From Cornus controversa (lineage: Eukaryota > Streptophyta > Magnoliopsida > Cornales > Cornaceae), in NCBI GenBank assembly GCA_026545225.1, contig CM048845.1, positions 95,296,533 to 95,360,532 of the forward strand: a stretch of 64,000 nucleotides of DNA, read 5' to 3'. Under the pieces are notes generated by a model. That model searched no databases, was not told where the DNA came from, and saw nothing but the letters and a program-made list of their open reading frames with translations. The position numbers and the translations under genes are program-made. This document shows, one piece after another, positions 4,299 through 43,054 of the stretch. Position 1 is the first letter of the stretch. Each line of letters starts with the position of its first letter.

Positions 4299-4380
4299 GG
4301 GTAAATATCTTTGACCTTCCCTGAGGTTTATCGAAATCCCACATACCTCCCCTCTTGTTTGCATAATCCCACTGGCCTCC
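4299..4380 (+). repeat. MULE left terminal inverted repeat
   Basis: It pairs with 10801-10882. The first 18 bases of the two ends are identical. Confidence 0.9.
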
Positions 4381-4674
4381 CTTGACGTTTTGATCCGTGT
4401 ATCGGACATCCCCCTTCCGTTATAGCAGCTGACGCAGTTAAAGGGAATCTGTTGGCGTCAGCTCTGAAAGGTTTATTTTGCCCTTCTGACTCATTAAATG
4501 ACTCTTTTAACGTTTTGACCAACTAAAAATTACTTTATACCATTATATAAAGTTACCACAATACCCTTAGCCTTTATTATACATATACCTAACCTCTAGA
4601 CCCATTCGGCCATTGTAGCAGCTGTAGGAGGTCTCTCTCTCTTTTCGTTCCAGCCAGCCATGCTAGTAGCAGTT

Positions 4675-4822
4675 GCCTCTCTCTCTTTCTCCCCCTTTTG
4701 CTTGCGTAATATTAGGGATTTGAATCTATCATTATCAAACTAAAGATGGAGTTTCTCTTTCTCCCCTCTTTGCTTGTATAATATTAGGGATTTGAAGCTA
4801 TCTTTATCAAACTAAAGATGGA
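4675..4822 (+). repeat. 72-bp tandem duplication over the GRF gene start
   Basis: Two copies of about 72 bp each end in CTAAAGATGGAG. The first copy's ATG (4746-4748) opens a frame of 11 codons that ends at TAA 4779-4781. The second copy's ATG (4818) opens the GRF frame. The upstream copy is therefore a short uORF created by duplicating the start region. Confidence 0.7.
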
Positions 4823-5255
4823 GTCTCATAGCACACATGCAAACCATGGTAGGCATCTAAGGTACAGAGAAATCTTCTGTCATTGTGGTAGTGTGGCTGA
4901 AATTAAGGTTACCAAATCCAATGAGAACAACAACAAAGGAATGTTATATTATGTGTGCTCCAATAGATCTTGCATGAAGTGGAAATGGAAATGGTGTGAT
5001 CCAACTGATGATGACTTGGAAATTTTATCAGTAAGTGAAATGCAGCTATTCAATGATGAAGCAACCTCTACATAGGAAATGGTGGATACACATGTTATAT
5101 TGACTCGTTTGGCAGTGGTTGAAGCAAACTCTTCTTCCTTGAAAATTCTGGGCATTGCATGCATGTTGTTTTCTTTTATGTATTTTTTGATTTCCTTAGC
5201 TTCTATTGATAAGGATTACTCTAAGGGAGAACAAATAAGTTCATGTTTGTTTTGA
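4818..5255 (+). pseudogene. GRF-type zinc-finger protein with C-terminal membrane segment, carried inside the MULE
   Basis: The frame from 4818 encodes a GRF-type zinc finger in residues about 20-60. It has a Cys-His-Cys-Gly start, a later YYVCSN, and a Cys in a Trp-rich stretch followed by CDP, giving four candidate zinc ligands. A TAG at 5073-5075 ends the first 85 codons. The same frame then stays open to TGA 5253-5255 and encodes a hydrophobic helix (GIACMLFSFMYFLISLA) and a short polar tail. Zinc finger plus C-terminal transmembrane helix is the usual layout of small plant GRF proteins, which supports one original frame with a single nonsense change. The gene lies wholly between the MULE TIRs and converges on the transposase. 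Its function is unknown; nucleic-acid binding is inferred from the GRF fold. A still-translated 85-residue zinc-finger-only product is possible. Confidence 0.65.
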
Positions 5256-5670
5256 TTCACTAGCTTGGGAATAGTTCTGTATATACCTTTAATTATGTAT
5301 TGTTATGGTGATGAACTTTTTGTTTGTTATGTATATTATGTTATGAAGCAATATGTATTTGTACAATATGTTATGCAGCAATATGTATTTGTGTAATATG
5401 TAATTGTGCAATTAATTTCATGCCTTCCAGTAGTGTCTATTCTGTAATTAGCCAAACATATATGACAAACAGGTAAAAACCATTTTGAATAACATGCATT
5501 TGCAAAACCATAACAAATGTAAAAAATATCCAAACATAACACAAATCTAATTAGCCAAAATCACACAAACATCCATCAACGAGTTTTATGTTGCAAAAAA
5601 ACACAAACCAAACTACCAAAAATCCTAAACAGTTTTATGTTGCAATCTACCAAAAAACAAACAACAATGT
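5256..5670 (+). other. Spacer between the convergent MULE genes
   Basis: AT-rich sequence with short repeats such as 'caatatgtatttgt' around 5345-5400. No further coding potential is seen; it is probably the shared 3' region of the two convergent genes. Confidence 0.5.
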
Positions 5671-5699
5671 TTACATATTTTGAGATCCTCCCATCCCTC

Positions 5700-6139
5700 T
5701 TCCCCTAGCTCCTAGTTGGCCAAATACAGGTATGAATCTCCCTCTCCCCATAGTTGGTTGTGATGAGCTGTTTCTTCCTGTTTGTGCATTTGATGGAGCT
5801 GCAATGTTCCTACTTCCTCTTCCTCTTCCATATGTGAATGCAGACCCTCTCCCTCCTTGTGTGTTTGATGGAGCTACATTGCTTTCCCTTCCTCTTATAT
5901 GTGTGAATGCATCCCCTCTTCCTCTTTGTGCATTTGATGGAGGTGCATCCCCTCTTTTTCCTTGTGCATATGATGGATGTGCAACCCCTCTTCCTCCTTG
6001 TGCATTTGATGGAGGTGCAACCCCTCTTTCACTCTGCGCATTTGATGAATATGGTGGAGCTGCAGTCTCTCTCCCTCTCTGTGCAGATGGTGGAGCTGCA
6101 TTTCCTCTACCTCTTTGTTGTGGGGCTGAGCTCCCCCTT
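5700..6139 (-). repeat. Repeat-encoded Arg/Gly-rich tail of the transposase
   Basis: A unit of about 45-48 bp encoding variants of RGxAPPSNAQGG is repeated about six to eight times. The tail ends GMGGSQNM and a TAA at 5673-5671. Apparent open frames on either strand across this block are shadows of the repeats. Confidence 0.7.
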
Positions 6140-8241
6140 CTATGTGTGTCATTTTATTGTTATCACAAATAACAAAAAAAAATATGTCAAAATAAACTAT
6201 GAAGTGATTGGAAAGAAAATTATAACCCAACTCCACTTACTTGTTAGGTGACACATGACTATGATTGGGATGCCCCTGCACTTCCTATTCCTCTTCCAGC
6301 TTATTGTGCCTAACATAACAATATTATATCCTCAAATTAACTGATTCATAAATAAATAAAAAAGGATTCATTACATGCCAAAAAAAAAAAGTAAATTCAT
6401 ATCACCTGTTCCCTTCTAGTTGGAGTCTTTTGACAAGTTCTTTTGTTATGCCCAAATCTTTTGCAAAGTGTGCATGCAAGAGTGAAACTCCTTCTACATG
6501 GACTAGTACCTGGGGCAGCTTCATCAACATCTCTTCTTCTATTTTTCCTAGGCCTTCCAGGTAGTCTTCTAGGAGGAGGAGGATCCAATGGTATTCCAGT
6601 GTATGGCTCCCACAGTTTTGGGTCAGGTATAGGATATATCATTCCTTGATATGTCTTCATATATGTCTCAATAGTGTAACATGAATCACAGTAAGTCTCA
6701 ATATTGTCTATGGTGTAACATATTGCAGTTGCTGCATGCTTACAAGGTAAGCCTGAGATTTGCCAACCATGACAGTCATATGTTCTGTCATTCAGATTGA
6801 TGATATGCCTAAATGACTCATCCATTACCTCAAACAGTCCCCCACCAGCAACCCTCACATTATATTTCCTTCCTTCAACAGTTAGCTTATTTAATTGATT
6901 CATATTGTTTGGTGTGACCACACCATTCCAACTGCAACCCATTTGGTACCTTTTTTGAAGTCTTTCCATAAGTTTTACCCTAATCCCATCTAAGCATGAA
7001 AGTATAGGCATCATCCTAAGATCACCAACCCAATTGTTGAAACTCTCAGTTATGTTGTTGGTCACATGATCATTCCTCACACTTGGATTAAATGCATGCC
7101 TAGACCAAGTTGACAATTGAAAGTCAGGATCTAAGTTTCTCATTTGATCTATTGCCTCTTCAAAAGTATATGAGTTATAGGCTCTAGCAGCCTTCCAAAA
7201 CTTTTTCATTAACATGAACCCACCATATTTTTTCTTAAATGCATTATACAAATGCTTACAACACAGTCTATGAGTTGCTTGGGGAATGATTTCTACAATT
7301 GATTGGTCAAAGCCCTATTATATTTAACAAACTTAATTAAACAACAGAAATATAATTTAGGAAAGTAATTGATTTAAAAAAAATAGAATTTTGATTTACC
7401 TTTTGCATGTCTGACATGATGGTCCAATTCTTGGAAAGTGTATTTGCTTCAATTACAGTGCTTAAGTGTTGCAGAAAAAATACCCAACTGTCCTTTCTCT
7501 CACTCTCCACCACAGCAAATGCCACAGGAAATAAACCATTATTGGCATCCAAAGCAATGACTGCCAATAGTACACCACCATATGGTCCCTTCAAATGATA
7601 GCCATCCAACCCCAGAAATGGTCTACAACCCAACTTGAATCTAGTTCTCATTGCTTCAAATGAAATAAAAATTCTTCTAAATGTTGGGTTCACAGTAAAA
7701 TCAGGTTGCCAATGGTTGAACTTAACTAAGCTGCCTGGATTACTTTTTCTTATTTCATTTGCATACTGGGGTAGTAACTTATAGCAGACAGAATGACTGC
7801 CCTTAACTTCATCCATTGCCTTTCTTTTTGCCTTATACAACTTCATCTCTTTTGGTTGAAGTCCATAATTTGACCTAAGTGCCCTTTTCAATCCCTTCAC
7901 AGTAAACTCTGGATTTTCCTTAAACCTATTAACATTCTTCTTAGCTATCTACCTGGAATCAGCCTCTGTTGTCAGTGTTTATAAACCTAACACAATCATG
8001 TCTGTCATCCAATGTCTTAATCATATATGTCACATTATCTGGGAGAGGTGATGCATGTATCCTCCATGGGCAGCTAGGTGTGCTATACCTACAAATCACT
8101 CTTGTTTTTTTATTTTTTATTCTCCACAGTCTAAACCTCTCCTGAATTGCATAATCCTTCAATACTTCTCTAAAATGGTCTACATTGTCAAAGATATGAT
8201 ATTGCTCCAGTTCAATTTTAGCCCCTTCAACTCCAAGAAAT

Positions 8242-8810
8242 TGTAATACCCCGCTCCAACACATGGTATGATATTGTCTGCTTTGGGCTTGAGCCCGCAC
8301 GATTTTGCTCTTGGGTTTTACCCCAAAAGGCCTCATACCATCTGAAGAGAACATACTACATATAAGCACATCCCCTTTTTCACACCCAGGCGATGTGCGA
8401 TTGGGCACCCTGTATCCTGTCAGTGTGATAGCTCAGCCCAGTGTCTGTCTTCGCACCCGCCCACTCACACCCGTCCACAGGGGTTACTACAATCCACCCC
8501 CCACGAGGCCTGATGTCCTCGTCAGCACACTTCCGGCTGGGTTCAGGCTCTGATACCAACTGTAATATCTCGCTCCAACATATGGTATGATATTGTCTGC
8601 TTTGGACCTGAGCCCGCACGGTTTTGCTCTTGGGTTTTACCCCAAAAGGCCTCATACCATTTGAAGATAACATACTACATATAAGCACATCCCCTTATCT
8701 ACACCCAGGCGATGTGGGATTGAACACCCTATACCCTGTCAGTGTGGTAGCTCAGCCCAGTGTCTATCTTCGCACCTGCTCACTCACACCCGTCCACAAG
8801 GGTTACTACA
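8242..8810 (-). mobile_element. TRIM (terminal-repeat retrotransposon in miniature) nested in the MULE
   Basis: Two direct repeats of 250 bp (8242-8491 and 8561-8810), each TGTAAT...TACTACA on the plus strand, flank only 69 bp. On the minus strand the internal part starts with a primer-binding site TGGTATCAGAGCC (complement at 8546-8558) matching initiator Met-tRNA. It ends in a purine tract GTGGGGGGTGGAT. The flanks GAAAT (8237-8241) and AAAAT (8811-8815) look like a 5-bp duplication with one mismatch. There is no coding sequence, as expected for a TRIM. The LTRs differ at about 20 of 250 positions, so the insertion is several million years old. Both ends are present. Confidence 0.85.
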
Positions 8811-9639
8811 AAAATTCTTTTCCATACTTGCTGTAATCACACACCCTAATCTTTGGCATTTTTTTACTTCTTGCCTTTGTGCTTGTCTTTCCATAATATC
8901 CCTCTTCAACTTCATCTTCTTCATCCCACCCATCACTTGATGAATACCCACAGTCATCATTAGATTCATAGTCACTTAACCTATCATCACTTCTGTTCAA
9001 ATAAGCATTGTTCTCAACTGTTCTTTCATTTATTAGAGTTTCATCATTGCTAGATGATTCAGATTGAGAACCACCTTCATTCCAATCTTCATCTTCAGAA
9101 CTAAACCCATACACATAATCCTCTCCCTCACTGTTATTATCTACCTTAACATGTTCTTGTTCATTATGAGTTTGATTAAAGTCCCCTTCATTGTTATTAT
9201 CAACTTCAACATTTTCCTATTCATCCTCAAATTGATCATATTCCCTTTCATTATTCTCACCAAAATCAACACTAACAGGTGTCTCTACTTCAACAAATAG
9301 GTTTATGTCTCTCCTAGAAACATGAAAGCTAAACATGTCCATTACATCAACATCACTACTGACCAACATCTTATACTTACTATTAGGTAATTCATAGTGT
9401 ATTATTGGTGCTAAATCAACAATGCCATAAAAATTAGTAAGAGATTTATAACAATCCTCACTCAAATAAGATGAGAAAACCTATCAGGATCTACATTCCA
9501 TATTGTACTAACTGAATCCAAATGATGAAAATGTAAGTCATGATATGTATCCATGACTTTGACAAAAACACAAAATTACTGTACATAAAAAAATAAAGCT
9601 ACATTATCATATATTCAATGATAATAATTTACATCAGAA

Positions 9640-10330
9640 ATATAAAACCCCTAATTCAAAGCAGAACCATAAAAAGCGTAATTGGCAGCCCTAATTTCAG
9701 TCACAAACAAAAAAAAATTCCAAATTATAAGCCTTAATTGAAAGCAGAAACGAAAAACCCACAAATTAGAAGCCCTAATTTAAATTAGAAACAAAAAATC
9801 GCAAAATTCTAAACCTTAACTGAAAGCAGAAATGAAAAACCCCCAAATTGGAAGCCATATTGAAAGCAGAAGTATAAAAAATCTAATTGGAAGCCCTAAT
9901 TTAAATTAGAAACAAAAAAATCCCAAAATTCTAAGCCTTAATTGAAAGCAGAAACGAAAAGCCCCCAAATTGGAAGCCATAATTTAAAGCAGAAGTATAA
10001 AAAACCTAATTCGAAGCCCTAATTTAAATCAGAAACAAAAAAATCCCCAAATTTAAGCCTTAATTGAAAGTATAAACAAAAAACTCTAATTGGAAGCCCT
10101 AATTTAAATCAGAAACAAAAAATCCCCAAATTTAAGCCTTAATTGAAAACATAAACAAAAAACTCCCAAATTTAAGCATTAATTGAAAGCATAAACAAAA
10201 AACCCTAATTGAAAGTCCTAATTTAAATCAGAACCAAAAACCCCCAAATTCTAAACCTTAATTGAAAGCAGAAACAAAAAACCCCCAAATTGGAAGCCCT
10301 AATTGAAAGTAAATATATACAAAACCCTAA
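9640..10330 (-). repeat. Minisatellite-like array in the transposase leader
   Basis: About eight or more imperfect units built from 'gaagccctaatttaaat', 'cagaaacaaaaaa' and 'cccccaaattctaagcc'. The compound period is about 75-80 bp made of two half-units. It lies between the transposase ATG and the right TIR, so it belongs to the element's 5' leader or promoter. Confidence 0.7.
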
Positions 10331-10800
10331 TCGAAAGCTCCCAATAGTGAAAATGTGAAGAATGTAACAAATCCTAAACTTAACAAAAACACGAACAAGT
10401 TGAATATATAAAAAGTTTTGAGTTTTGTACATACCTCGCAGACACTAAGCCAAAATCGCGATCTTCTTACAGTTTCTGCTCTGATTAGGATATGAATCGA
10501 ACCGAAGATATCAAACCCCCAAACGATTCTGTGATTTTCTCTTACAATTTCTTCTATGTAACTTTCTCTCTCTACATCGTTCTCTTTCTCTCTACATCGT
10601 TCTAACTTGTCTCTGTGTACATTGTATAAGAGAGCCAAAAAATTTGACCAAGTGTGGATTACGAAGCTCATAGCACATAAGGGTACCTTCGTCATTTCTC
10701 ATTTGGACATAATTTAATATATAATAATATATATAATACGAGGGCATTACGATAAAATCACCCACAACCGTTAGTTTTTTGGACGACTGTCATTGATAGG

Positions 10801-10882
10801 AGAGGTCAGTGGGATTATGCAAACAAGAAGGGAGGTATGTGGGATTTCGATAAACCTCAGGGGAGGTCAAAGATATTTACCC
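10801..10882 (-). repeat. MULE right terminal inverted repeat
   Basis: It is the reverse complement of 4299-4380 with about three mismatches. Similarity ends after CCCACTGACCTC. Confidence 0.9.
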
Positions 10883-11693: not shown

Positions 11694-12024
11694 CGCCATA
11701 TGCAAACACTTTTTTATTTTTCTTTAATGAACTGTCATAACATTTAATGCATACACCTTTCCGTCAGCCAAGAGAGATATGGTGGGGTCAAGCATTGTCT
11801 CTACTCTATACCAAGTTCGTTAGCAGACTCTGTACCAACGGAGAAGACTTCAAAAAGAGAGAGGAAGACTTCATAAATTAAGCGCATCTTTTCTGAATTA
11901 ATAACATTAATACAAGTTTTTCTTGATAGGTTTATACAAGTCTTTCCAAATATCGTAACCGAGGCGGTACTATACATGTCTTTCTAACCAACTAACCTCA
12001 CATTTCTGAAATCTACTTCCAAAA
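11694..12024 (+). promoter_or_regulatory. Upstream region of RLK-A
   Basis: The last 130 bp align with the region just upstream of RLK-B, sharing 'tacaagtctttc' and 'cctcacattt' before the ATG. They are probably the conserved 5' leader of this gene family. No clear TATA box could be assigned. Confidence 0.35.
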
Positions 12025-14905
12025 ATGACTCCAATTTTGCCTCTCAACTCCTTCATAATACAAACACTATCCATAGTGTTCATAACATTGCTACATATCA
12101 CCATGAGTACCCTCCCCAGTGCTGCTGCAATTGGGAAAAATGAGACAGATCATCTTGCCTTATTGGCCTTCAAGTCAAAAATTATTCATGACCCTCAAGG
12201 TGTGATGAGCTCATGGAATGAGTCCCTTCATTTCTGCAAGTGGAAAGGTGTTATATGTGGTCATCGCCATGGTAGAGTCATCAGCATTGATCTAGGGTCC
12301 AGAGGTTTAGTGGGTTCATTGTCACCTAATGTGGGAAACTTGAGCTTCATTCGGGTGTTAAAACTCTTCAACAACACCCTCCAAGGCGAAATTCCTTCTC
12401 AAGTTGGTCATTTGTTCAAGCTGCAGATATTGAACCTAAACAACAACAACTTTGAAGGGCAAATTCCAGCCAACTTATCACACTGCTCCAACCTCAGACT
12501 TCTTGCTGTAGCTTACAATAAGCTAGTTGGGAAACTTCCGGAAGAACTTGGTTCCTTGTCAAAACTCACAAATCTCAGCATTCACTGGAATGACTTAGCT
12601 GGAGGGATCCCTCAATCCATTGGAAGATTGAATTCTCTAGAATATATTTCTGCAGCTGAAAATCTTTTCACCGGCAGTCTTCCTATTGTCTTGGGTCAAT
12701 TGAAAAATCTTAAAGGACTTGGGCTTGGTGGCAATAAACTCTCGGGTACAATTCCTCCTTCCGTTTACAATCTTTCTTTTCTAACTCATTTTTCTTTGGC
12801 TAATAACCAACTTGATGGCACTCTTCCACCGCGCTTCGGTTTGATGCTCCCTAGTCTTCAACTCCTTCAATTATATGGTAACAAATTTACTGGACCCATT
12901 CCGCTCTCAATATCCAATTGTACAGCACTAGAAAGCCTTGATTTTGGAATAAATAATTTCAATGGGAAATTAGGAATTAATTTTGGAGGCCTCCAAAATC
13001 TCGGAGAAATTTTTCTAAGTGAAAATAATTTAGGAAGTGGAGAGCCAGATGAAATGAGCTTCATTGATTCTATGGCCAACTGTACCAATTTGGAGAATTT
13101 AGATCTGGCTGTTAACCAATTCAGAGGGGTCTTACCTAATTCTGTGGGTAATCTCTCAAACCAACTTTTTCAGCTATCAATTTTTGAAAATTTCATACAT
13201 GGAAAACTCCCTTCAGAAATAGGTAATCTTGTCAACTTAAATTTTTTAGATGTATATGATAATCGATTCACGGGCACAATTCCAGCAACCATAGGAAATC
13301 TTCAAAATTTACAAAGGGCATTTCTTGACAAAAATACATTCTATGGGAAAATTCCAGAATCTATAGGAAACTTGTCATTGTTGACAGAGCTTTCCTTTCG
13401 TGAGAACAGATTAGTGGGGAACATACCCTTGAGTCTTGAAAATTGCAAAAAATTGTTATTTCTTGATCTTTCCCAAAATAATCTTAGTGGCACCATACCC
13501 AAACAACTTTTGAGTATTTCCGCTCTTTCTATTTTACTAAATCTATCTCGAAACCATTTGTTTGGATCCCTTCCTTCAGAGGTTGGCATCCTCAAAAATT
13601 TGGCAGAGTTGGATATATCTGAGAATGAGTTGTCCGGTGAAATTCCTAATAGCCTTGAGAGTTGCACTAGCCTCGAAAATCTCTATATGGAGGGAAACTT
13701 TTTTAATGGATCTATTCCTCAATCATTGAGTTCCTTAAGAGGTATTCTGAACTTTGATCTTTCTAGGAACAAATTGTCTGGACAGACTCCGAGATTCTTC
13801 GAGCATTTTTCCTTAAAGAATCTTAACTTATCCTTCAATGATTTTGAGGGTGAGGTGCCCATTGAAGGAGTTTTTGCAAATGCTAGTGCAATATCAGTTG
13901 TTGGAAACAATAGGCTCTGTGGGGGCATACCCAAACTTCAATTACCAAAATGCAACATCAAAGAATCAAAGAAACAGAAAAGCTCTCTTGGGCTCATATT
14001 AGTGATCTCGATAGCGTGCACTCTTCTGGGTGTTACAATGGTGTTATCTTTCTTATTTTGTTGGGTTAAAAAGAAAAGAAATGCTCAACCTTCTGGAATA
14101 CTATTGAGGGAATCGTTCTTCAAAGTGTCTTATGAAATGCTTCTCAAAGCAACTGACGGGTTCTGGTCAGCAAATTTGATTGGTGTGGGTAGTTATGGAT
14201 CTGTCTACAAAGGAATCCTTGATCCAAATGAAGCCATTGTTGCAGTCAAAGTACTAAATCTCCAGCGTCAGGGAGCTTCCAAAAGTTTCATGGCAGAGTG
14301 TGAAGCCTTAAGAAATATCAGACATCGGAATTTGGTAAAGATCATTACTTCTTGCTCGAGCATAGATTTTCAAGGAAATGATTTTAAGGCTCTAGTCTAT
14401 GAGTTCATGCCCAATGGGAGTCTAGAGAGTTGGTTGCATCCAAGTCAAAAATCTACTAACGGAGAGAATGATCAAATGCAAAGCCTAAACCTTCTTCAAA
14501 GAATAGATGTTGCAATTGATGTGTTGTGTGCACTCGAGTATCTTCAGAATCATTGCCAAACGCCAATAATTCATTGCGATCTAAAGCCAAGCAATGTCCT
14601 ACTTGATAGTGACATGGTTGCTCATGTAGGAGATTTTGGCCTAGCAAGGTTTGTTCAACAACTCACAAATCCAAATCAAAGCAGTTCAATTGCAGTAAGG
14701 GGAACTGTTGGCTATGCAGCTCCAGGTAAACATGCACAATACATATATTATTGTTTCTTAATATTTGCATCTTCATCCCTTAGATTTAAAACTGTTTCAC
14801 TGAATACACCATAACTTGCTAGGATTTAGATTTGATACCTAATTATCTTCTTAGGATTAAAATTTGATAGCAGGTTAGTCCCTGTGGCTGTGCGCGCGTG
14901 TGCAC

Positions 14906-17435: not shown

Positions 17436-20400
17436 CTAAAAGAGACTAGACAGTCCCATATGCATTACATGATCTTTACACAACTTAGGTGGTAATGCTT
17501 TCGTCATAGGATCTGCTATCATCATCTCAGTGTTGATGTGCTCAATTATCACCACCTTATTATGAACACATTCTCTGACAGCGAAGTACTTTATATCGAT
17601 GTGTTTACTTCGACTGCCACTTTTATTATTCTTAGAAAAGAATACTGCAGCAGAATTGTCACAGAAAATCCTCATTGGCCTAGAAATAGAGTCAATAACT
17701 CTAAGCCCTGTAATGAAATTCCGTAACCATATAACCTGTGATGTTGCCTCAAAACACGCTACAAACTCTGCCTCCATAGTTGAAGAAGCAGTTAAAGACT
17801 GCTTTGTGCTTCTCCAAGATATTGCTCCTCCCGCTAGAAGGAACACATAACCTGATGTTGACTTTCTAGAGTCAACACAACCAGCAAAGTCTGAATCTGA
17901 ATAACCAATCACCTCCAAATGATCAGATCGTCTATAGGTAAGCATGTACTCCTTAGTTCCTTGAAGATAACGTAACACTTTCTTTACAGCTCTCCAATGA
18001 TCCATGCCTGGATTACTTTGATATCTACCTAACATGCCAACTGCAAATGATATGTCCGGTCTAGTACAGACTTGGGCATATATCAAACTTCCAACTGCAG
18101 AGGCATAAGGAATATTTTTCATCTGTTCCCTTTCTAGATCATTTCTTGGACATTGATTTAGACTGAATTTGTCACATTTGACAATAGGTGCTACACCCGA
18201 TGCACAATTTTGCATTCTAAATCTCTCCAATACTTTGTTTATGTAGGCTTTCTGAGACAATCCTAATGTCCCTTGAGATCTGTCTCTATGAATCTCTATG
18301 CCAATGACATAAGAGGCTTCACCCATATCCTTCATATCAAAGTTTTGAGAGAGAAACCTTTTTGTTTCTTGTAGCAAACCTAAGTCATTACTGGAAAGTA
18401 GAATGTCATCCACATATAAGACTAAAAAAATGAATTTGCTCCCACTGATCTTGAGGTATATACAATGATCAACCGCATTCTCTTCAAATCCAAAAGAAGA
18501 TATCACATTGTGAAACTTTATATACCATTGACGGGAAGCCTGTTTTAGTCCATATATGGATTTCTTTAGTCTACAAACCAAGTGACTTTCCTTATCTAAA
18601 CCAAATCCTTCAGGTTGAGTCATGTAAACCTCTTCCTCTAAATCTCCATTGAGAAATGCCGTTTTCACATCCATTTGATGTAGCTCTAAATCATAATGAG
18701 CTACTAATGCCATGATTATTCTAAATGAGTCCTTCTTTGAAACTGGAGAGAAGGTTTCATGGTAATCTATGCCTTCCTTTTGAGTAAATCCTTTGGCTAC
18801 AAGTCTAGCTTTATATCTTTCTATATTACCATTTGAGTCCTTTTTGGTCTTATAGACCCATTTACAGCCAATGGCTTTGACTCCTTTAGGTAATTTAACA
18901 AGATCCCAAACTTCATTTCTAGCCATAGAATTCATCTCATCTTTCATAGCATCATACCAAAATGTAGATTTATCGCCACTCATGGCTTGTGAAAACGTAA
19001 TTGGATCATTCTCAATATCAATGTCATAGTCAGATTCTTGTAAGTACACCAAATAATCTCAAGAAATTGCAGTTTTTCTTTCTCTAGAGGATCTTCTTAA
19101 TGGGATATCAATAGTCTCATTTTGAGATTGTTGAATATCACCCTCTATGGCAATCAGTTCTTCATTGAGTGGCAAGGTTTGAATTGGTTGTTCTTCCTCA
19201 ATGATATTTTGTGGAACATCTTGAAAAACAACAAACTCAGATGTAATTGCAGGTGTAGGTACTGGATCCTGCATTTCCTCAAAGGTTAAACTTTGAGTTT
19301 GTGCACTCCCACTAATGTTGCCATCCTCAAGAAATTTTGCATTTCTTGCTTCAACTATTTTCATATTATGGGTAGGACAATAAAACTTATATCCCTTGGA
19401 TCGATCTGCATAGCCAATGAAAAAACCACTAACTGTTCTTGGATCCAATTTTCTCTCTTGTGGATTATACAGTCTGACCTCAACTAGACAACCCCAAATG
19501 TGTACATGCCTTAAACTTGGTTTCCAACCATTCCACAACTCAAAAGGAGTTTTAGGAACTGCTTTAGTGGGAACCCTATTTAAGATGTATACAGCAGTTT
19601 TTAAGGTTTCACTCCACAAGAATAATGGGAGATTGGAGTTGCTAAGCATACTCCTTACCATATCCATTAAAGTACGATTCCTTCTTTCAGCTACACCGTT
19701 CTGATATGGTGAGCCAGGCATCGTATACTGTGCAATAATTCCATGTTCCTCAAGGAATTTTACAAATGGACCTGGCTTTTGTCCTGTTCCCGTGTACCTG
19801 CTATAGTACTCCCCACCTCTATCTAATCTCACAATCTTAATTACTTTATCTGTTTGTTTCTCTACTTCCACCTTATAGGCCTTAAAAGCATTTAATGCTT
19901 CAGCCTTCTCAAATAGAAGATAGAGATACATATATCGTGTGTGATCATCAATAAAGGTGATGAAGTATTTCTGACCATTTAGACATGGTGTAGGAAAAGG
20001 TCCACAAATATCAGTATGTATGATTTCTAAAGTGTTAGAACTCCTCCTGGCACCCTTCTTGGTTTTGTTGGTCTGTTTGCCCTTAATACAGTCCACACAA
20101 GTACCAAAGTCAGAGAAATCAAGAGTCTGGAGGACCCCTTCATTCACTAACCTCTTAAGTCTCTCTATGGAGATATGTCCCAACCTATGCCACAACATAG
20201 AGGATGTTTCATTCATAATACTCCTCTTTATGCCAATACTTTCGGTTGTAGTAAAAAGATTAAAATCACAAACTGGATCTAGACATAGTTTATACAAACC
20301 ACCATCTAGAAGACCAGTACCAACAACAACAGAGTTTTGAAACAAGGTTACAGAACGGTCACAAAAACTGAAAGAAAAACCCAAAGGTTCAAGTCTGGAA

Positions 20401-21542
20401 ACAGAAATTAAGTTTCTAGAAAACGATGGAATATAAAAGGTCTTTTCCAAATTTAAAACAAAGCCAGTTTGTAAAACAAGTCTAAAGGTTCCAACAGCTT
20501 CCACATGTGAACGCATCTGGTTTCCTGAATAGATGCAACATTCACTTCCCATCGGATTCCTTTGGTTTAGAAAACCCTGCATAGTATTGGCAACATGGAT
20601 TGTAGAACCAGAATCAATCCACCAAGTATTATTACTAACACAAACCATATTAGATTCATAACATACTAATGAGATGAGATTACCTTTCTTTTCAAGCCAA
20701 GCTTGAAACTTCTTGCATTCTCTTTTAAAATGTCCTGTCTTTTTGCAGAAAAAGCACCTGATGGGGTCTTTATTGCCAGATTTGATAACTGACAGTTTTT
20801 TATTCTTTTCATTGTTAGAAGAACTCTCCCCTTTATGCCAATTCTTCCCTTTTCCTTTTCCATGAGAGACTAGATGGACACTTTCTAGACCCTCCTGCTT
20901 CAATCTCCCTTCCTCTTGAACACACATGATCAGTAACTCATTAATTGACCATTTATCTTTATGTGTGTTATAAGAAATCTTAAATGGTCCAAATTGATGT
21001 GGAAGAGAGTTGAGTATGAAATGGACAAGAAAGGACTCTGTAATCTCAATCTCAAGAGACTTTAGTTGTGCTGCAATGTCTCTCATTCCCATAATGTGCT
21101 CACGCACTCCTGAAGTACCATTGTATTTCATGGATGACAATTCTTTCATTAGGGTACTAGCCAGAGCCTTATCGGAACTTGCAAATTGCTCCTCAATAAA
21201 TTGAAGGTATTCCTTCACTTTAGTACTGTCTGGAATGGATCCCCGAATACTTTTTCCCATATGAGACTTAATAAGCATCAAACTCAAGCGGTTGGATCGC
21301 TCCCACCGTTCATATGATGCTTTCTCACCTGGTGTACTAGTTTCAGTGGGAATAGGAGGTTCTTCCACACGGATAGCCAAATCAAGATCCATGCACCCTA
21401 ACGTAAGGAGAATTTTCTCCTTCCAATCTTTATAATTGTCACCATTCAGAAACGGGATATGTGATGATTCCTTCGATAAATAGGTAGATGATATAGCTGC
21501 AAAAATTAATAAAGCATGCTTACTAACGTGTAATGAAAACAA
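17436..21542 (-). CDS. Copia gag-pol region
   Basis: Recognisable parts in order: gag with the knuckle [14 protein letters not shown], protease [11 protein letters not shown], and the integrase zinc-binding region LWHRLGH with its catalytic core. Reverse transcriptase with YVDDILL and RNase H near the end follow. Order and motifs are those of Ty1/copia (TNT1-94-like polyproteins). I do not assign a finer lineage. The region is nearly whole, with about one break. Confidence 0.9.
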
Positions 21543-21933
21543 TAATATTTTGGAAATTCAACCCACGTTAAATGTTCCAGAAACAAATCATTGCATCATT
21601 GTAACCATCCTGTGGGTAAAAGCTACAACATACTATTGATTTGTAAAATATCCTTTATAACAGAATTATTAAATTTAAGATATTGAAATAGAAAACTCTA
21701 TACCTGTGGGCATTTAGAATATTTCTAAAACAATATCTCTTCCATATATAATTCTATTGAAATTAACCTCATATATGTGACCTCCCTGTGGGGCCAAGTC
21801 ACTGTCCCAATGGTTAATTTTAAACTTTAATGTCATTTACATTTTTCAAGATTCACGATGCTTTGGCTACTCTAGAATCAGGCAAAATGTATTAACTTTA
21901 TAATGACAGTATTAACATGCACTAAAACATTAC

Positions 21934-31070: not shown

Positions 31071-32112
31071 AAAAAAATAAGACAAAAGATTAGGAGAGAG
31101 AATGGGAGTAAGAGAAGGAAAAGATAAGAAGAAAGAAGAGAAAAAATAGGAGTTAGAAATAGAAAAATTAGAAAGAGATGTAGATGATACAATTTTGGCA
31201 CAAACGTTAAATATATATAGACTTCAAATAAATCTATTTAAATATATTAAAATTATATAAAAATGTAAGGGTGGGTCCGCTTTAACAAAATATAGTACTA
31301 AAAAAAAAATTTAGATGGGGTCATCTAGTGGTTGAAGTGCCACTGATGATTCGCTAAGAAATAAATATTATCAGTCAGTCGAAGGTGACACTTTAATTTG
31401 GTCAAAAAGTGGTTTAAAGAAAGCCAGTGTACAAGTTCAACGGTACTCTCTCTCTCACTCTTGTAGATATTAAGTGCATCCGGCCCGGCGCAACAAATAC
31501 CTACTCCTTCTTCTCTCTCCTGGTAATCAGAAGACTTGAAAAAGAGATACATACAAAAGACTTCTACTCGATCTTATTAGTGTGAGAAAGATTTGTAAGA
31601 GTACAAGTCTTTCCTACTATCTGTTTCCAATTAATGCCAAGAGACTTGGGAAAATGATCGGAAGACTTGAGAAACAGCCTTTCTGCATAGTTCCAAAGAT
31701 TCTAACTCAATAATTCCTTTAAATTTAAGATGATCATGCAATAACAACCATATATAAATCTCACCCGTTTCTCATTGCGCATGCATGCATCCCTCCAATT
31801 CTTAGAAAATCTCTAGCCCAACTTTAACGACACATTCTCTCTCCTAATTAAGTTTGTCATTGCGCATGGATGCATGCATGCATCCGTCCAATTCTTAGAA
31901 AATTTCTAGCACGACTTTAACGACACATTCTCTCTCCTAATTAATAGAGAAGACTTCCAAAGAGATCGAGGGAAGACAATTTGGAAATTAATTGCCTCAT
32001 ATCTTTTTCGCATTAACAACACAATACAAGTGATCCTAGCTTCTTGATATATAGATTCATACAAGTCTTTCAATCTATCCTCACATTTTTTTAAATCTTT
32101 GCACTTTCAAAA
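31071..32112 (+). promoter_or_regulatory. Upstream region of RLK-B
   Basis: Contains an 85-bp tandem duplication (31773-31942) and a TATATAAATC at 31751-31760. It also has leader sequence shared with RLK-A just before the ATG ('atacaagtctttc'). The TATA candidate is 360 bp from the ATG, so its use is uncertain. Confidence 0.35.
31773..31942 (+). repeat. 85-bp tandem duplication upstream of RLK-B
   Basis: Both copies run 'cattgcgcat...' to '...ctctcctaatta' and contain GCATGCATGC (RY-like) motifs. A third, partial copy at about 36828-36870 lies in the corresponding region upstream of RLK-C. Confidence 0.8.
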
Positions 32113-35100
32113 ATGAGTCCAATTATGCATCTCAACTCCTTCAAAATACAAACACTGTCCCTAATGTTCATTACGTTGCTGCATATCATCGTGATTACCC
32201 TCCCTAATGCTAATGCCACTGCCAGTGGTATTGTAACCATTGGCAAAAATGAGACAGATCATCTTGCCTTGTTGGCCTTCAAGTCAAAGATTATTCATGA
32301 CCCTCAAGGTATCTTGAGCTCATGGAATGAGTCCCTTCATTTCTGCAACTGGGAGGGGGTTGCATGTGGTCATCGCCATCGCAGAGTCGTCAGCATTCAT
32401 CTAGGGGCCAAAGGCTTAGTGGGTTCATTGTCACCTTATGTTGGAAACTTAAGCTTCCTTCGGAGTTTAAAGCTCTTCAACAACACCCTTCAAGGTGAAA
32501 TCCCTCCTCAAGTTGGTCATTTGTTCAGGCTGCAGATATTGAACCTGAACAACAACAGCTTTGAAGGAGAAATTCCAGCCAACATATCCTACTGCTCCAA
32601 CCTCTGGTATCTTGGTGTATGTTGCAATAAGCTAGTTGGGAAACTTCCGAAAGATCTTGGTTCCTTGTCAAAGCTCACAAATCTCATCATTTTCTTTAAT
32701 TACTTGACTGGGGAGATCCCTCAATCCATTGGAATGACTCCTCTGGAATATGTGTCTGCAGCTGACAATCTTCTCACGGGCAGTCCTCCTAAAGCCTTGG
32801 GTCAACTAAAAAACCTAAAAAGACTCATACTTGGTGGCAATCAACTTTCTGGTACCATCCATCCTTCCATTTATAATCTTTCTTTTCTAACTGTTCTCTC
32901 TTTGGAGGAAAACCAACTTCATGGCACTCTTTCACCGAGCTTCGGTCTGCTGCTCCATAATCTTCAAGTACTCCTTTTGTGGGGGAACAGATTAACTGGA
33001 CCCCTTCCGCTCTCAATATCCAATTGTACAGCACTAGGAAACGTTGATATTGCAGAAAATAATTTCAACGGAAAATTAGGAATTAATTTTGGAGGCCTCC
33101 AGAATCTCAACAAAATTTTCATATATAAAAATAATTTAGGAAGTGGAGAGCAAGATGAAATGAACTTCATTGATTCTATGGCCAACTGTAGCAATTTGGA
33201 GAAAGTAGATATTTCTGTTAACCAATTTAGAGGGCTCTTACCCAATTCTGTGGGCAATTTCTCAATACAACTTTCTTTTCTACTTCTTGGTCAAAATTTC
33301 TTATATCGACAACTCCCTTCAACTATAGGTAATCTTGTCAATTTAAATATTTTAGCTGTAGAAACTAATCAATTCACAGGCACAATTCCAGCTACTATAG
33401 GAAATCTTCAAAAATTACAACGGGCATTTCTTAACGGAAATACATTCAATGGGGAAATTCCAGAATCTATAGGAAACTTGTCATTGTTGACAGAGCTTTA
33501 CATGGCTGGGAACAGATTGATGGGAAACATACCCTTGAATCTTGGAAATTGCAACAAACTTTTATTGCTTGATCTTTCCCAAAATAATCTTAGTGGCACC
33601 ATACCCAAACAACTTTTGACAATTTCAGCTCTTGCTATTTTACTAGATCTATCTCGAAACCGTTTGTTTGGATCCCTCCCTTCAGAGGTTGGCAACCTCA
33701 AAATTTTGGAGGTGTTGGATATATCTAAGAATGAGTTGTCTGGTGAAATTCCTAATAGTCTGGAGAGTTGCACTAGCCTGGAAAATCTCTATATGGAGGA
33801 AAACTTTTTTAATGGATCTATTCCTCAATCATTGAGTTCTTTAAAAGGTATTCTGAATTTTGATCTTTCTAGGAACAAATTGTCTGGACAGATTCCGAGA
33901 TTCTTGGAGCATTTTTCCTTAAAGAATCTTAACTTATCCTTCAATGATTTTGAGGGTGAGGTGCCCATTGAAGGAGTTTTTGCAAATGCTAGTGCAATAT
34001 CAATTGTTGGAAACAATAGGCTCTGTGGGGGTATACCCACACTTCAACTACCAAAATGCAACATCAAACAATCAAAGAAACATAAAAGCTCTCTTGTGCT
34101 CATTTTAGTGATCTCGATAGCATGCACACTTCTGGGTGTTACAATGGTACTATCTTTCTCATTTTGTTGGGTTAAAAAGAGAAGAAATGCTCAACCTTCT
34201 GGAATATTGTTGAGGGAATCGTTATTGAAAGTGTCTTATGAAATGCTCCTCAAAGCAACTGACGGGTTCTCTTCAGCAAATTTGATTGGTGTGGGTAGTT
34301 ATGGCTCTGTCTACAAAGGAATCCTGGATCCAAATGAAACAATTGTTGCAGTCAAAGTACTAAACCTCCAACGTCGGGGAGCTTCCAAAAGTTTCCTAGC
34401 CGAGTGTGAAGCCTTAAGAAATATCAGACATCGGAATTTGGTAAAGACCATAACTTCTTGCTCAAGCATTGATTTCCAAGGAAATGATTTTAAGGCTCTA
34501 GTTTTCGAGTTCATGCCCAATGGGAGTTTAGAGAGTTGGTTGCATTCAAGTTCAACATCTAATAATGGAGAGAATGATCAAATTCAGAGCCTAAACCTTC
34601 TTCAAAGAATTAATGTTGCAGTTGATGTGTTATCTGCACTTGAGTATCTTCACCATTATTGTCAAACACCAATAATTCATTGCGATCTAAAGCCAAGCAA
34701 TGTCCTACTTGATAGTGACATGGTTGCTCATGTAGGAGATTTTGGGCTAGCAAGGTTTGTTCAACAACTCACAAATCCAAATCAAAGCAGTTCAATTGCA
34801 GTAAGGGGAACTATTGGTTATGCTGCTCCAGGTAAGGATGCATAATACATTATTGTTTCTTTTTATTTGCATTGTCTTGCTCTAGGTTTGAAACTGCGTC
34901 ACTAAAGACACCATAACTGATACCCAACTAGCTTCTTAGGATTAAAATTTTAATTAATTTTGTGAATGGCAGAGTATGGTCTAGGAAGCAAAGTGTCAAC
35001 AAAAGGAGATTTATACAGTTATGGGATCTTGGTATTGGAGATGATGACAAGGAAAAGGCCTACTGACAGTATGTTTGAGGGAGGTCTTAACCTTCATAAC

Positions 35101-39084: not shown

Positions 39085-39316
39085 CAACACGTTTTGAGTA
39101 AATTGCCTCAAGTTCATATCATCAAATTGTTCATGTTTAAATGGTCTTGTCATAAAAATAAAAAAAATTATAGGAACACCCGAAAATAAAATTATACTAT
39201 CTAGTCCTTGCACTAGAAATGTCAAGATAAAGATGAAAATAAAAAGAAATAACAAAATCCAAGACTTTTGCTGCAGATGAAATGAAAATCACTCATAGAA
39301 TTTAATAAGGGCCTAC
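39085..39316 (+). repeat. Cluster-specific dispersed repeat, tail of one copy and head of the next
   Basis: Positions 39085-39205 are the repeat's 3' part. Positions 39260-39316 are the 5' part ('gctgcagatgaaatgaaaat' to 'aagggcctact'). The 5' part breaks off where RLK-C sequence begins. Confidence 0.6.
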
Positions 39317-40738
39317 TGGAGTGTTTGCAAATGCTAGTGCAATATCAATTGTTGGAAACAATAGGCTCTGTGGGGGCATACCCAAACTTCAACTACCAAA
39401 ATGCAACATCAAAGAATCAAAGAAACATAAAAGCTCTCTTGTGCTCATTTTAGTGATCTCGATAGCATGCACACTTCTGGGTGTTACAATGGTACTATCT
39501 TTCTCATTTTGTTGGGTTAAAAAGAGAAGAAATGCTCAACCTTCTGGAATATTGTTGAGGGAATCGTTCTTGAAAGTGTCTTATGAAATGCTCCTCAAAG
39601 CAACTGACGGGTTCTCTTCAGCAAATTTGATTGGTGTGGGTAGTTATGGCTCTGTCTACAAAGGAATCCTTGATCCAAATGAAGCCATTGTTGCAGTCAA
39701 AGTACTAAATCTCCAGCGTCAGGGAGCTTCCAAAAGTTTCATGGCGGAGTGTGATGCCCTAAGAAATATCAGACATCGGAATTTGGTAAAGATCATAACT
39801 TCTTGCTCGAGCATAGATTTTCAAGGAAATGATTTTAAGGCTCTAGTCTATGAGTTCATGCCCAATGGGAGTCTAGAAAGTTGGTTGCATCCAAGTCAAA
39901 AATCTACTAACGGGGAGAATGATCAAATTCGGAGCCTAAACCTTCTTCAAAGAATTAATGTTGCAGTTGATGTGTTATCTGCACTTGAGTATCTTCACCA
40001 TTATTGTCAAACACCAATAATTCATTGCGATCTAAAGCCAAGCAATGTCCTACTTGATAGTGACATGGTTGCTCATGTAGGAGATTTTGGGCTAGCAAGG
40101 TTTGTTCAACAACTCACAAATCCAAATCAAAGCAGTTCAATTGCAGTAAGGGGAACTATTGGTTATGCTGCTCCAGGTAAGCATGCAAAATGCATTATTG
40201 TTTCTTTTTATTTGTATTTTCTTGCTCTAGGTTTGAAACTGCATCACTAAATTAAAGACACTATAACTGGTACCCAACTAGCTTCTTAGGAATAAAATAT
40301 TAATTAATTTTGTGTATGATAGAGTATGGTCTCGGAAGCGAAGTGTCAACAAAAGGGGATTTATACAGTTATGGGATCTTGGTATTGGAGATGATGACAA
40401 GAAAAAGGCCTACTGATAGTATGTTTGAGGGAGGTCTTAACCTTCATAACTTTGCTAGGATGGCTTTTCCTGACCGTGTTATGGAGATTGTAGACCCAAT
40501 ACTTCTGAACGTTGATGATGAAGAAGAGGTAGCAGCAGTGTCGAATAGAAACCGGGTTCCTGAAGAATTAAGAAATGGCATCAGAATGGAGTGTGTGTTG
40601 TCAATGATCAAGGTCGGAGTTGCATGCTCCATGGAGTTGCCACAAGACCGGATGGACATAACTGATGGCCTGCATGAGCTGAATTTGGTCAAGAAAAATC
40701 TTCAAGGCGTTCGAACAAGTCCTGACGGACAATGGTAA
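39317..40738 (+). pseudogene. RLK-C: receptor kinase lacking its LRR ectodomain (5'-truncated)
   Basis: Homology to RLK-B begins at about 39317 inside the last ectodomain segment (VFANASAISIVGNNRLCGG). It runs through the transmembrane helix and the whole kinase. The intron fits at 40177-40322 and the stop is TAA 40736-40738. The kinase motifs are intact: GVGSYGSVYKG, VAVK, HCDLKPSN (non-RD), DFG and APEYG. The signal peptide and all LRRs are missing, and the frame has no good ATG near its start. Without a new promoter it is a pseudogene. If transcribed from the repeat upstream, it could give a membrane-anchored or soluble kinase. Positions about 39671-39920 look like RLK-A while both sides look like RLK-B. 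Confidence 0.9.
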
Positions 40739-41195
40739 GAGCCAAAACTCAAAACTTAAATGTCTTTTTATTTTCTTGTCCTTGCTCTGTAGTTGGTTTA
40801 AAAATTGTATTCCAAAACATAGCTTTGTGCTTTGGTTACCAGATTGGGGTAGGGTCCAAACCCTTGACAGATGGAGAATGAAATTCTAGCCCTTGTACTG
40901 TTCTTAGGAATGTTAAGAGGACCATCAGATTCAAGCTCATGTCTCTAAAACTCAAGGACTCTGCTTCAACTAGAAGGCTTGCATCTGAATGGAACCTTTC
41001 TATCAGCAATGACTAGCTATTTCAGAAGGATGCTGTTTAATTCTTAAGTTCTTTGTTGCTGTGTTGTTGTAGTTAGTCGATTGCTTGTTGGTTGGTGGTT
41101 CTGCTGATGTTGTAGTTAGTCCTGTGTTGGTTTCCCTTGTGTTCATGTAGTGGTTGATTTTGTCTAGTTTTCCAGAGCCATTTTTGTTTGCTAGA
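40739..41195 (+). repeat. RLK-C 3' flank, copy of 35380-35840
   Basis: Near-identical to the flank of RLK-B, showing that the duplication unit extended past the gene. Confidence 0.8.
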
Positions 41196-41255
41196 CTTTG
41201 ACCCCAAGGTATGCCCTAGTTCTGTGTATTCCTTTTTATATTCTATACAAAGTTA

Positions 41256-41920
41256 TGTTGGAAAAAATATATGCGTATATGTTACTATTTAAGATATAAA
41301 GCAATTATACTAACACGTTAAATCACATAAACATAATGGAAAATCTCTTACCATTTCACAATATATAAAACCTTCTATAAGTTTCTATATCAAGTAAGAT
41401 TATAACACATGTAATAATCTAGACTACTGAACTCATGTACAGTACATATATCATATGTTATATAAACCATAAAAATATAACAGAACTTAAAATATATATA
41501 AATACTGAAGAACCTGTAGATCGAGGCTAGAGTTAGACTCTATGTCCTTAAGACAATTATCGCCTCGCAATGGTGTTGAACGGACTCTTGGCGACTGTCT
41601 CCCAGGATACAATACAATGATCTTCATCTCAATCAGTAGCAACACTACAAACCAACTGAGCTTCTGCGAACCACCTGTGTGTTTGTACTCTCTTGGACTT
41701 GACTATTCAGACCAAATTACTAATACTTACTGCCACTTGGATTAGGCTATATAGGTTTTGAGACGTGAGAGAAGAAGTCTTTTAAAAAACATATATTACA
41801 AATGGTAAATGACCTATTTATAGGCATATTGTGTCTATTCGATACTAACAGACACTTTTAGTGTTCATTCAGTGTGAATCGCACTGTTTCACATTTAATT
41901 TTCATTCAAATTTTCTAACA
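41256..41920 (-). mobile_element. Solo LTR, copia-type (665 bp)
   Basis: TGTTGG...CTAACA ends with a perfect 5-bp duplication AGTTA (41251-41255 and 41921-41925). A CCTATAAATAGG box on the minus strand (about 41812-41824) gives the direction. No second LTR, primer-binding site or coding part is next to it, so it is the product of LTR-LTR recombination. It is unrelated to the LTRs at 16366 and 22268 apart from the termini. Confidence 0.85.
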
Positions 41921-41925
41921 AGTTA

Positions 41926-42437
41926 TGCTTTACCAATATATATATATATATATATCAAAGTGGAACTACCAAACCTTGGCTTTATAGATTAATGGAACAT
42001 ACAATCAGACCTTAATCAGTTTGAAAACTATTTGGAAATTAATAGTTTTTGTAATTCAAGAAAGTGCATCATGAAGAATGTTTTGTGGATCCTACCATAT
42101 GTTTAACCCTGCCTATGGTACAGTTGAATCTTTATCAAGATAAATTAAAACATTTTAATGGTCTTAAAAAATAAAAAAGAGATATTAAGTTCTCTCTACA
42201 AATATGTTTGTGTGTGTTTTGGAGTGGATAAAATCAAAGATAAAAACAGAATTGTGACCCTTGTGTACATTTTATTCCCATGCATAAGACAATTTTCAGC
42301 TACTACAGATATCTAATGCTAAATTCCAAACCGAAGGATCTTTACAACACATGCACCAACTTAATTCTCTCCTCTATCCTTCTAAACCTTCCACTCTTCA
42401 ATTCTCTCTCTCTATTATATGAGAGTATAAGGTATAT
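41926..42437 (+). promoter_or_regulatory. Upstream region of the anchored kinase
   Basis: A (TA)n tract at about 41937-41954, otherwise AT-rich. A CT-rich leader ('attctctctctctattat', about 42400-42418) precedes the ATG, as in many plant 5' leaders. Confidence 0.35.
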
Positions 42438-42998
42438 ATGAGAGTGAAGAAGAGGAGAACAAAGAACAACACCATGTGGTTCCTTGGATTCTCCACCACA
42501 AATCCAAGAAACTATTGGATCATTGGTGCAATAATACTGGTGATCGTTCTCACCATTATCCTAAAACAATTGGCCATCTATCTAGAGTATTCTCAAGGGG
42601 ATAATTATTCTAAGCAAGAAGCTGATCATGGTGAAAAATATAAAGAATCATGTAAAATTGATTGCAGCCATTGTTGCTCTGGTGCTATAAGGACTTATGC
42701 ACTTGAAGAGCTGAAGACGGCTACAAGGGACTTCAGGATTCGAATAGGAGTTGGAGCCACATCCTTTGTGTATCTTGCAGAGCTTGGTGACGGACAATTT
42801 GGTGCGGTGAAGCGGGTTATAGAGGAGAGAGGTGGCAGCAAGAAGATGTTCTTAGATGAAGTTTCGGTTCTCCTTAGGATTTCACACCCAAATTTGGTAG
42901 GGTTGTTGGGTTTCTGCTTGGATAAAGGTAATTCAGCCATATATAATCCATTCTATACAAGTAATCATTGCAAGATTATAAATGTGTATACTGTATGA

Positions 42999-43054
<56 letters not shown>

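What the first reader, a model, noticed from the sequence alone, without database searches (positions are those of the whole stretch)
4299..10882. Two-gene MULE: transposase plus an opposing GRF zinc-finger/transmembrane gene
Both genes lie inside one pair of 82-bp inverted repeats and converge, as mudrA and mudrB do in maize MuDR. GRF/TM proteins are usually annotated as host genes of unknown role. Here one is clearly cargo or a second component of a Mutator-like element. If the pairing recurs, many plant GRF proteins may be transposon proteins, perhaps helping membrane or nuclear targeting or nucleic-acid binding.
Basis: partly seen in the sequence, partly recalled or inferred. Interest (0 to 1): 0.72.

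Follow-up and report, generated by a model that had tools for sequence, protein, structure and literature searches.

The report
Jumping gene with zinc-finger membrane helper
A plant jumping gene of the Mutator type carries, besides its cutting enzyme, a small second gene for a zinc-finger protein with a membrane anchor, and in this plant's genome the same pair recurs in many related elements, so many such "unknown" zinc-finger genes may be jumping-gene parts.

Summary
Window 4299-10882 is a Mutator-like element (MULE): 81-bp inverted repeats (78/81), a minus-strand MULE transposase, and a convergent plus-strand GRF zinc-finger/transmembrane (GRF-TM) gene. This copy is dead: both genes have stops, and a small LTR element sits in the transposase. 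In the window's own 772-Mb plant genome, 10 of 10 fetched sister elements with transposase also carry GRF-TM in the same place and orientation (two share one insertion); 9 short derivatives carry neither, one place shows GRF only. Genome-wide, among scored hits, 83 of 245 GRF places have a MULE transposase within 8 kb: all 83 convergent; random placement gives mean 0.99. Five further GRF-TM families (31-42% identical) keep the zinc ribbon and C-terminal membrane stretch; the ribbon is constrained between families. MULEs with an opposing second gene are known (MuDR, Abermu), so this is a new variant of a known kind; the paper searches showed no GRF-MULE link. Function is inferred: a tail-anchored, probably single-strand-DNA-binding transposition helper. 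162 of 245 GRF places lack a scored partner; other plants were not searched.

The parts
4299..4379 (+). terminal inverted repeat, GRF side
   Evidence: 78/81 identical to the other end
10802..10882 (-). terminal inverted repeat, transposase side
4818..5255 (+). GRF-TM gene: frame from ATG 4818, interrupted at 5073-5075; in sister copies open to the end, the frame ends at the position of 5217-5219
4878..4988 (+). GRF zinc ribbon (residues 21-57)
   Evidence: Pfam PF23549/PF06839
5145..5201 (+). single transmembrane stretch near the C-terminus (residues 110-128)
   Evidence: hydropathy 2.3 over 19 residues; confident helix (residues 105-135) in an otherwise poor model
5671..9554 (-). MULE transposase gene (broken), with introns inferred from frame breaks
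8019..8192 (-). DBD_Tnp_Mut (PF03108)
7382..7615 (-). MULE transposase domain (PF10551)
6724..6777 (-). SWIM zinc finger (PF04434)
5671..6153 (-). glycine/arginine-rich C-terminal exon of the transposase
   Evidence: open frame; same exon in L013
8242..8810 (.). small LTR element (TRIM-like) inserted in the transposase gene: two direct repeats of about 250 bp
   Evidence: D4, 91% identical; ends read by eye
9650..10340 (.). about 40-bp minisatellite between transposase start and right repeat
   Evidence: D1 and D2

Best explanation
The locus is a degenerate copy of a two-gene MuDR-type MULE family. Its second gene, transcribed towards the transposase, encodes a small protein: GRF zinc ribbon, a linker with a short helix, then one C-terminal transmembrane stretch with only a few residues after it (tail-anchored layout). 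Shown here: the gene belongs to the element; the pair recurs in at least six families (this one and five more), always convergent where a partner was found; the transposase partners fall in two deep clades of the tree made here; the zinc ribbon is under constraint. Inferred: the ribbon binds single-stranded DNA, as GRF ribbons of repair proteins do (recall), and the anchor holds it at the nuclear envelope/ER membrane. There it would act as a MURB-like helper that tethers transposon DNA or transposase complexes and promotes insertion. I give the helper function about 0.3, and this exact membrane-tethering version about 0.2. The confidence below is for the structural claim that GRF-TM is a standing second gene of these MULEs.
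For: 10 of 10 transposase-bearing sister elements carry it. 70 of 142 GRF-TM places and 83 of 245 of all GRF places have a transposase within 8 kb, all convergent, 0 in any other orientation; random placement mean 0.58 (max 4) and 0.99 (max 5) in 500 trials. Median spacing 2208 bp, quartiles 2136-2423. Of 5 divergent loci that I picked and read, 4 have convergent transposase remains within 3.5 kb, including both that had no scored partner within 30 kb. GRF and transposase distances correlate: r 0.875 over 15 copies, 0.58 over 6 family representatives (11 of 720 permutations as good). Family B has a repeat end 73% identical over 86 bp to this family's (E 1.9e-11), 519 bp before the GRF start, as in the window (positions). 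Between families pN/pS is 0.44 in the ribbon, 0.68 in the helix/TM part, 0.90 in the linker, 1.08 in the N-terminus. Transmembrane stretch with 2-6 residues after it in 17 of the 17 copies whose ends I had not cut; 3 more were cut by me. Profile matches NEIL3 GRF structures 7omk and 7jl5 (E 8.1e-5, 4.6e-4).
Against: 162 of 245 GRF places have no scored transposase within 8 kb, and 86 of 169 transposase places have no GRF; capped searches explain an unknown part. Of 105 GRF-TM places under 70% identity, 45 have a partner: 38 of 69 long matches but only 7 of 36 short ones. L033 and L034 show no transposase in the 8 kb fetched, L038 none in 3.2 kb. Within families A-C dN/dS is 0.70-0.93, near neutral, as expected of dead copies. 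Between-family dS is 0.8-2.0 or saturated. Mirror-tree support at family level is modest. The NEIL3 match rests on two weak domains added together (single-domain E 0.16 and 2.8 for 7omk). Abermu elements without an opposing gene are reported as polymorphic in rice, and the authors say ORFR may be unimportant for transposition (PMC9168764, passage). Nothing here tests DNA binding or membrane location.
Confidence: 0.92

Rival explanations
1. The GRF-TM gene is a host gene captured by one MULE ancestor and then carried along as cargo without a role in transposition.
For: MULEs often capture host genes (passages of PMC6446971). Within-family dN/dS is 0.70-0.93 in families A-C. 162 of 245 GRF places have no scored transposase nearby; some may be host genes.
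Against: Constraint between families is concentrated in the ribbon and, less, the helix/TM part; useless cargo would decay. The layout is kept in six families and two deep transposase clades.
Confidence: 0.2
2. The gene is an anti-silencing or host-interaction factor (like VANC of Arabidopsis Hiun), not a helper of DNA cutting or joining.
For: Extra MULE genes with an anti-silencing function are known (passage of PMC6446971). A zinc ribbon could bind nucleic acid.
Against: A C-terminal membrane stretch is unexpected for a protein acting on chromatin, though nuclear-envelope tethering remains possible.
Confidence: 0.2
3. Repeated independent captures: GRF genes were picked up several times by different MULEs.
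For: The E family has a transposase from another deep clade. 13 further pairs involve PF06839-type GRF places that the family-A query did not list.
Against: Same side and same orientation in all 83 cases and narrow spacing in the 70 measured; GRF and transposase distances correlate, and D and F are sisters in both trees.
Confidence: 0.2
4. Chance overlap, or a host locus that a MULE jumped around.
For: The window copy alone could not exclude it.
Against: Sister copies at other places with their own 9-bp target duplications carry the same gene.
Confidence: 0.01

Closest known systems
Maize MuDR (mudrA + mudrB)
   Same: MULE with two genes of opposite direction inside long inverted repeats, transposase plus a small second gene
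   Different: No GRF or membrane part is known to me for it (recall).
Abermu MULEs of grasses and a few other plants (PMC9168764; sections 13 and 15 and passages)
   Same: MuDR-clade MULE, GGG...CCC ends, transposase plus an opposing gene (ORFR), between transposase and the 3' repeat in type II; ORFR Ka/Ks 0.39-0.56
   Different: What I read names no domain for ORFR, and it lacks detectable similarity between distant species; type III has no ORFR. No sequence comparison with the present element was possible.
VANDAL/Hiun, Mutyl and ULP1-carrying MULEs (PMC6446971, PMC2528002; passages)
   Same: MULEs with standing extra genes
   Different: Their extra genes are VANB/VANC, MutB or ULP1-like sequences, not GRF-TM
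GRF zinc ribbons of NEIL3 (PDB 7omk, 7jl5)
   Same: Matched by the GRF-TM profile
   Different: DNA-repair enzymes; no tail anchor, not transposon-borne (recall)
Plant genes annotated as GRF-type zinc finger, such as At4g04775-like (name recalled)
   Same: Small GRF protein with C-terminal membrane part (recall)
   Different: Annotated as host genes; for example a spinach zf-GRF gene is listed as a GWAS candidate (PMC11844115, passage). Not compared here.

Membership tests
Mutator-like element (MULE) | MULE transposase with DBD_Tnp_Mut, MULE and SWIM domains | tested here: met
   PF03108, PF10551, PF04434 all above cut-off
Mutator-like element (MULE) | long terminal inverted repeats | tested here: met
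   81 bp, 78/81; 80-89 bp aligned in the 19 sister elements measured
Mutator-like element (MULE) | 8-11 bp target-site duplication | tested here: met
   met by the family: perfect 9 bp in 13 of 19 sister elements, 8 of 9 in 4 more; not met by the window copy itself (5 of 9)
MuDR type (two convergent genes) | second gene transcribed towards the transposase gene inside the repeats | tested here: met
   window and 10 of 10 transposase-bearing sister elements
MuDR type (two convergent genes) | second gene homologous to mudrB | not testable with these tools
   no mudrB sequence or plant protein database at hand
Abermu | GGG...CCC ends and opposing gene on the far side of the transposase | tested here: met
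   against the description in PMC9168764
[quoted passage not shown]
   no such sequence at hand
Pack-MULE | host gene fragments without transposase | tested here: not met
   full elements carry transposase; the 9 short derivatives carry neither of the two genes
GRF zinc ribbon proteins | match to PF23549/PF06839 with the cysteine pattern | tested here: met
   7 of 7 aligned members match both families at E up to 0.1; L013 and L031 over the PF23549 cut-off; the window copy under both cut-offs
GRF zinc ribbon proteins | binding of single-stranded DNA | not testable with these tools
   profile match to NEIL3 GRF structures only

The most novel reading that the evidence does not exclude
A tail-anchored GRF zinc-ribbon protein is an ancient core gene of a large part of plant MuDR-type MULEs, kept across at least two deep transposase clades, and a large share of the plant genes now annotated as GRF-type zinc-finger proteins of unknown function are MULE genes. 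It would be, as far as I know (recall), the first membrane-anchored helper of a cut-and-paste DNA transposon, tying transposition to the nuclear envelope.
Probability: 0.35. Interest if true: 0.78.

Novelty: new variant of a known kind. Interest (0 to 1): 0.64.

Why it matters
In the papers seen here, the second genes mudrB and ORFR have no assigned domain or mechanism. A recurrent second gene with a recognisable zinc ribbon and a membrane anchor makes the question of what MULEs need besides transposase directly testable. It also means that plant GRF genes annotated as host genes may need re-annotation as transposon genes, or as genes derived from them.

Tried and rejected
Relatives in viral contigs and genome contigs: none. 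Four viral-contig hits to an 18-base repeat end show one same GC-55% sequence that does not continue into the repeat: dropped. Idea that the window's in-frame GRF stop is the end of a 45-bp intron: dropped, because four copies are simply open there. AlphaFold model of the window GRF-TM protein: mean pLDDT 43.6, too poor for a fold search; only the membrane helix is confident. dN/dS on 8 family-A copies (pooled 0.76) is uninformative because copies are young and partly dead. The transposases L066-L071, chosen as GRF-less controls, are not a clean control: L069 has a classical GRF convergent to it and L066-L068 nest inside GRF-bearing families. Paper searches: (GRF terms with Mutator or transposase) gave 0 papers; one search gave 3 (one read as passages: no link; two by listing); one search gave 2 (listing); one search gave 40 (listing; PMC11734081 as passages: no link); some searches listed only 20 of 78, 20 of 341 and 40 of 12,654, so they are weak. 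Other wording, Repbase and most subscription papers are not covered. Rows dropped: L052/L064 (frames too broken) from alignment and trees; L051 from the GRF tree and the mirror matrix; L033, L036 and L051 cut by me in the GRF alignment, L053 at its N-terminus; L031 left out of the repeat and duplication counts because its far end was outside the fetched stretch; L038 not aligned. The 34 added transposase places were picked by eye.
Full report
What is in the window. Positions 4299-10882 are bounded by 81-bp inverted repeats, 78/81 identical. 100 dinucleotide shuffles of the region gave at best a 46-bit inverted match against 136 bits here. The minus strand holds a MULE transposase in pieces: an acidic N-terminal part, DBD_Tnp_Mut, the MULE domain, an inferred intron, a SWIM finger, and a glycine/arginine-rich last exon. 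The plus strand holds, between the transposase 3' end and the left repeat, an 85-residue GRF frame followed after one in-frame stop by a hydrophobic tail. The transposase carries frame changes, stops and a TRIM-like LTR element of about 570 bp with two repeats of about 250 bp, so this copy is dead. The flanks give no convincing target duplication.

Recurrence within the family. The own genome (771.7 Mb, 61 contigs) has 323 candidate places for the GRF-side repeat end; 40 were scored and all 40 matched. I fetched 20 places of 10 kb. Ten carry transposase pieces and all ten carry GRF and its tail in the same place, on the opposite strand (in L017 the tail match is partial); L021 and L030 have the same flanks and so are one insertion, duplicated. 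One more place (L031) has GRF with the far end outside the stretch; nine are 0.8-2.4-kb derivatives with neither. By coordinates, of all 40 hits: 18 have both genes nearby, 6 GRF only, 0 transposase only, 16 neither, two of the 16 being far ends of elements already counted. Thirteen of 19 measurable sister elements have perfect 9-bp target duplications and four more have 8 of 9. The GRF frame is open to its end in 4 of the 12 copies read, window included.

Recurrence beyond the family. The 133-residue GRF-TM protein of L013 gave 150 matches (150 of 242 candidates scored), 142 places after merging: 37 at 70% identity or more, 16 at 45-69%, 89 at 25-44%. The transposase of L013 gave 144 matches, with 138 of 729 candidates scored. 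A second transposase query (L055; 146 of 677 candidates scored) added 34 places, picked by eye, for 169 in all. 70 of the 142 GRF places have a transposase within 8 kb, every one opposite and downstream; random placement gave a mean of 0.58 and at most 4 in 500 trials. Median spacing is 2208 bp, quartiles 2136-2423. By identity group: 25 of 37, 3 of 16, 42 of 89. A Pfam search (PF06839; 115 matches, 150 of 378 candidates scored) shared 12 places with these and added 103, of which 13 have a convergent transposase within 8 kb and none another arrangement. Over the union, 83 of 245 GRF places and 83 of 169 transposase places are in such pairs; random mean 0.99, maximum 5 in 500. Random placement is uniform over contigs, with the lengths of C7 and C10 set by me at 65 and 50 Mb, so it ignores clustering of transposons; the orientation (83 of 83 convergent) does not depend on that. 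The pairs are copies, many of the same family, not independent events. PF23549 alone gave 17 matches (96 of 96 candidates scored): by eye, 13 of 17 lie just inside a repeat end; of the other four, fetched as L033-L036, two (L035, L036) have convergent transposase pieces and two (L033, L034) have none in 8 kb.

The protein. Twenty GRF-TM copies, in this family and five more, share CxC...NNKG.LYY.C...W.WC with single exceptions in some decayed copies, a variable linker, a short helix with an Arg and a Glu invariant in the 7 sequences, and one transmembrane stretch. In the 17 copies whose ends I had not cut it lies 2-6 residues before the C-terminus, the layout of tail-anchored proteins (established knowledge). 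Seven of seven aligned members, the other six 31-42% identical to the first, match PF23549 and PF06839 at E up to 0.1. The profile matches the GRF fingers of NEIL3 (7omk E 8.1e-5; 7jl5 E 4.6e-4), though each single finger scores weakly; GRF fingers of repair proteins bind single-stranded DNA (recall).

Selection and history. NG86 dN/dS is 0.76, 0.70 and 0.93 within families A, B and C, 0.42 and 6.3 in the two-copy families D and E (few changes), and 0.37-0.77 between families where synonymous sites are not saturated (12 of 15 family pairs; dS 0.8-2.0). pN/pS between families is 1.08 in the N-terminus, 0.44 in the ribbon, 0.90 in the linker and 0.68 in the helix/TM part. So the protein seems to have been kept for its ribbon and, less tightly, its anchor. 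GRF and transposase distances correlate: r 0.875 over 15 paired copies, 0 of 10000 permutations as good; 0.58 over six representatives, 11 of 720. The first value is inflated by relatedness within families. Families D and F are sisters in both trees. The transposase of family E falls in another deep clade of the midpoint-rooted tree, with L069 and L071; L069 itself has a PF06839 GRF convergent to it. Family B has a related repeat end (73% over 86 bp, E 1.9e-11) 519 bp before its GRF start, as in the window; in family C a GGG-starting stretch lies about 533 bp before the start but without significant similarity.

How it may work. Shown: a standing second gene of these MULEs with a constrained zinc ribbon and a predicted membrane anchor. 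Inferred: the ribbon grips single-stranded or processed DNA ends, or the transposase complex, at the nuclear envelope/ER membrane and helps insertion, as MURB is said to be needed for insertion of MuDR (PMC6446971 and PMC9168764, passages). Anti-silencing, as for VANC, is a serious rival. Simple cargo is less likely because of the constraint between families.

What is known. MULEs with an opposing second gene are known: MuDR, and the Abermu elements (PMC9168764: sections 13 and 15 read, passages of the abstract and of sections 3, 11, 14, 16, 17 and 23). The opposing ORFR has no named domain in what I read, and its authors say it may be unimportant for transposition, from polymorphic rice elements without it. 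PMC6446971, PMC2528002, PMC4334395, PMC11734081 and PMC11844115 were seen as passages only, all other papers as listings. The paper searches showed no paper linking GRF proteins and MULEs; several listings were capped, and Repbase and most subscription papers are not held. I therefore call it a new variant of a known kind.

Noticed in passing
window 8242-8810: TRIM-like LTR element, two repeats of about 250 bp at 91% identity, with a primer-site-like stretch (iMet tRNA type, recall) and near-identical 5-bp flanks (4 of 5, by eye), inserted in the transposase gene.
   Followed up: partly
window 9650-10340: A roughly 40-bp AT-rich minisatellite lies between the transposase start and the right repeat; blastn of sister copies to L013 gives summed aligned lengths well above the element length, suggesting they share repeats.
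   Followed up: no
L021/L030 (C5:16.18 and 14.58 Mb) and L033/L034 (C5:13.14 and 17.56 Mb): Pairs of copies with the same flanks or the same scores lie mirror-wise around about 15.35-15.4 Mb of contig C5, pointing to a large inverted duplication or an assembly artefact.
   Followed up: no
window 12010-14814, 32095-34845, 39309-44230: Leucine-rich-repeat receptor kinase genes (first two frames) and kinase-only frames or fragments beside the element.
   Followed up: no
window 17436-21557: Copia-type retrotransposon with gag, integrase and reverse transcriptase frames.
   Followed up: no
own genome, PF06839 places such as C3:12276942, C10:35047151, C5:29227659: Eight GRF matches with the same score and profile range (34.1 bits, positions 1-39; frames 55-69 aa) on several contigs without a scored MULE transposase within 8 kb: possibly another repeat family that carries a GRF piece.
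   Followed up: no
one of the 7 members of protein alignment A1: A GRF-TM member weakly matches DUF730 (PF05325, E 0.096), a family of unknown function that may be worth comparing.
   Followed up: no
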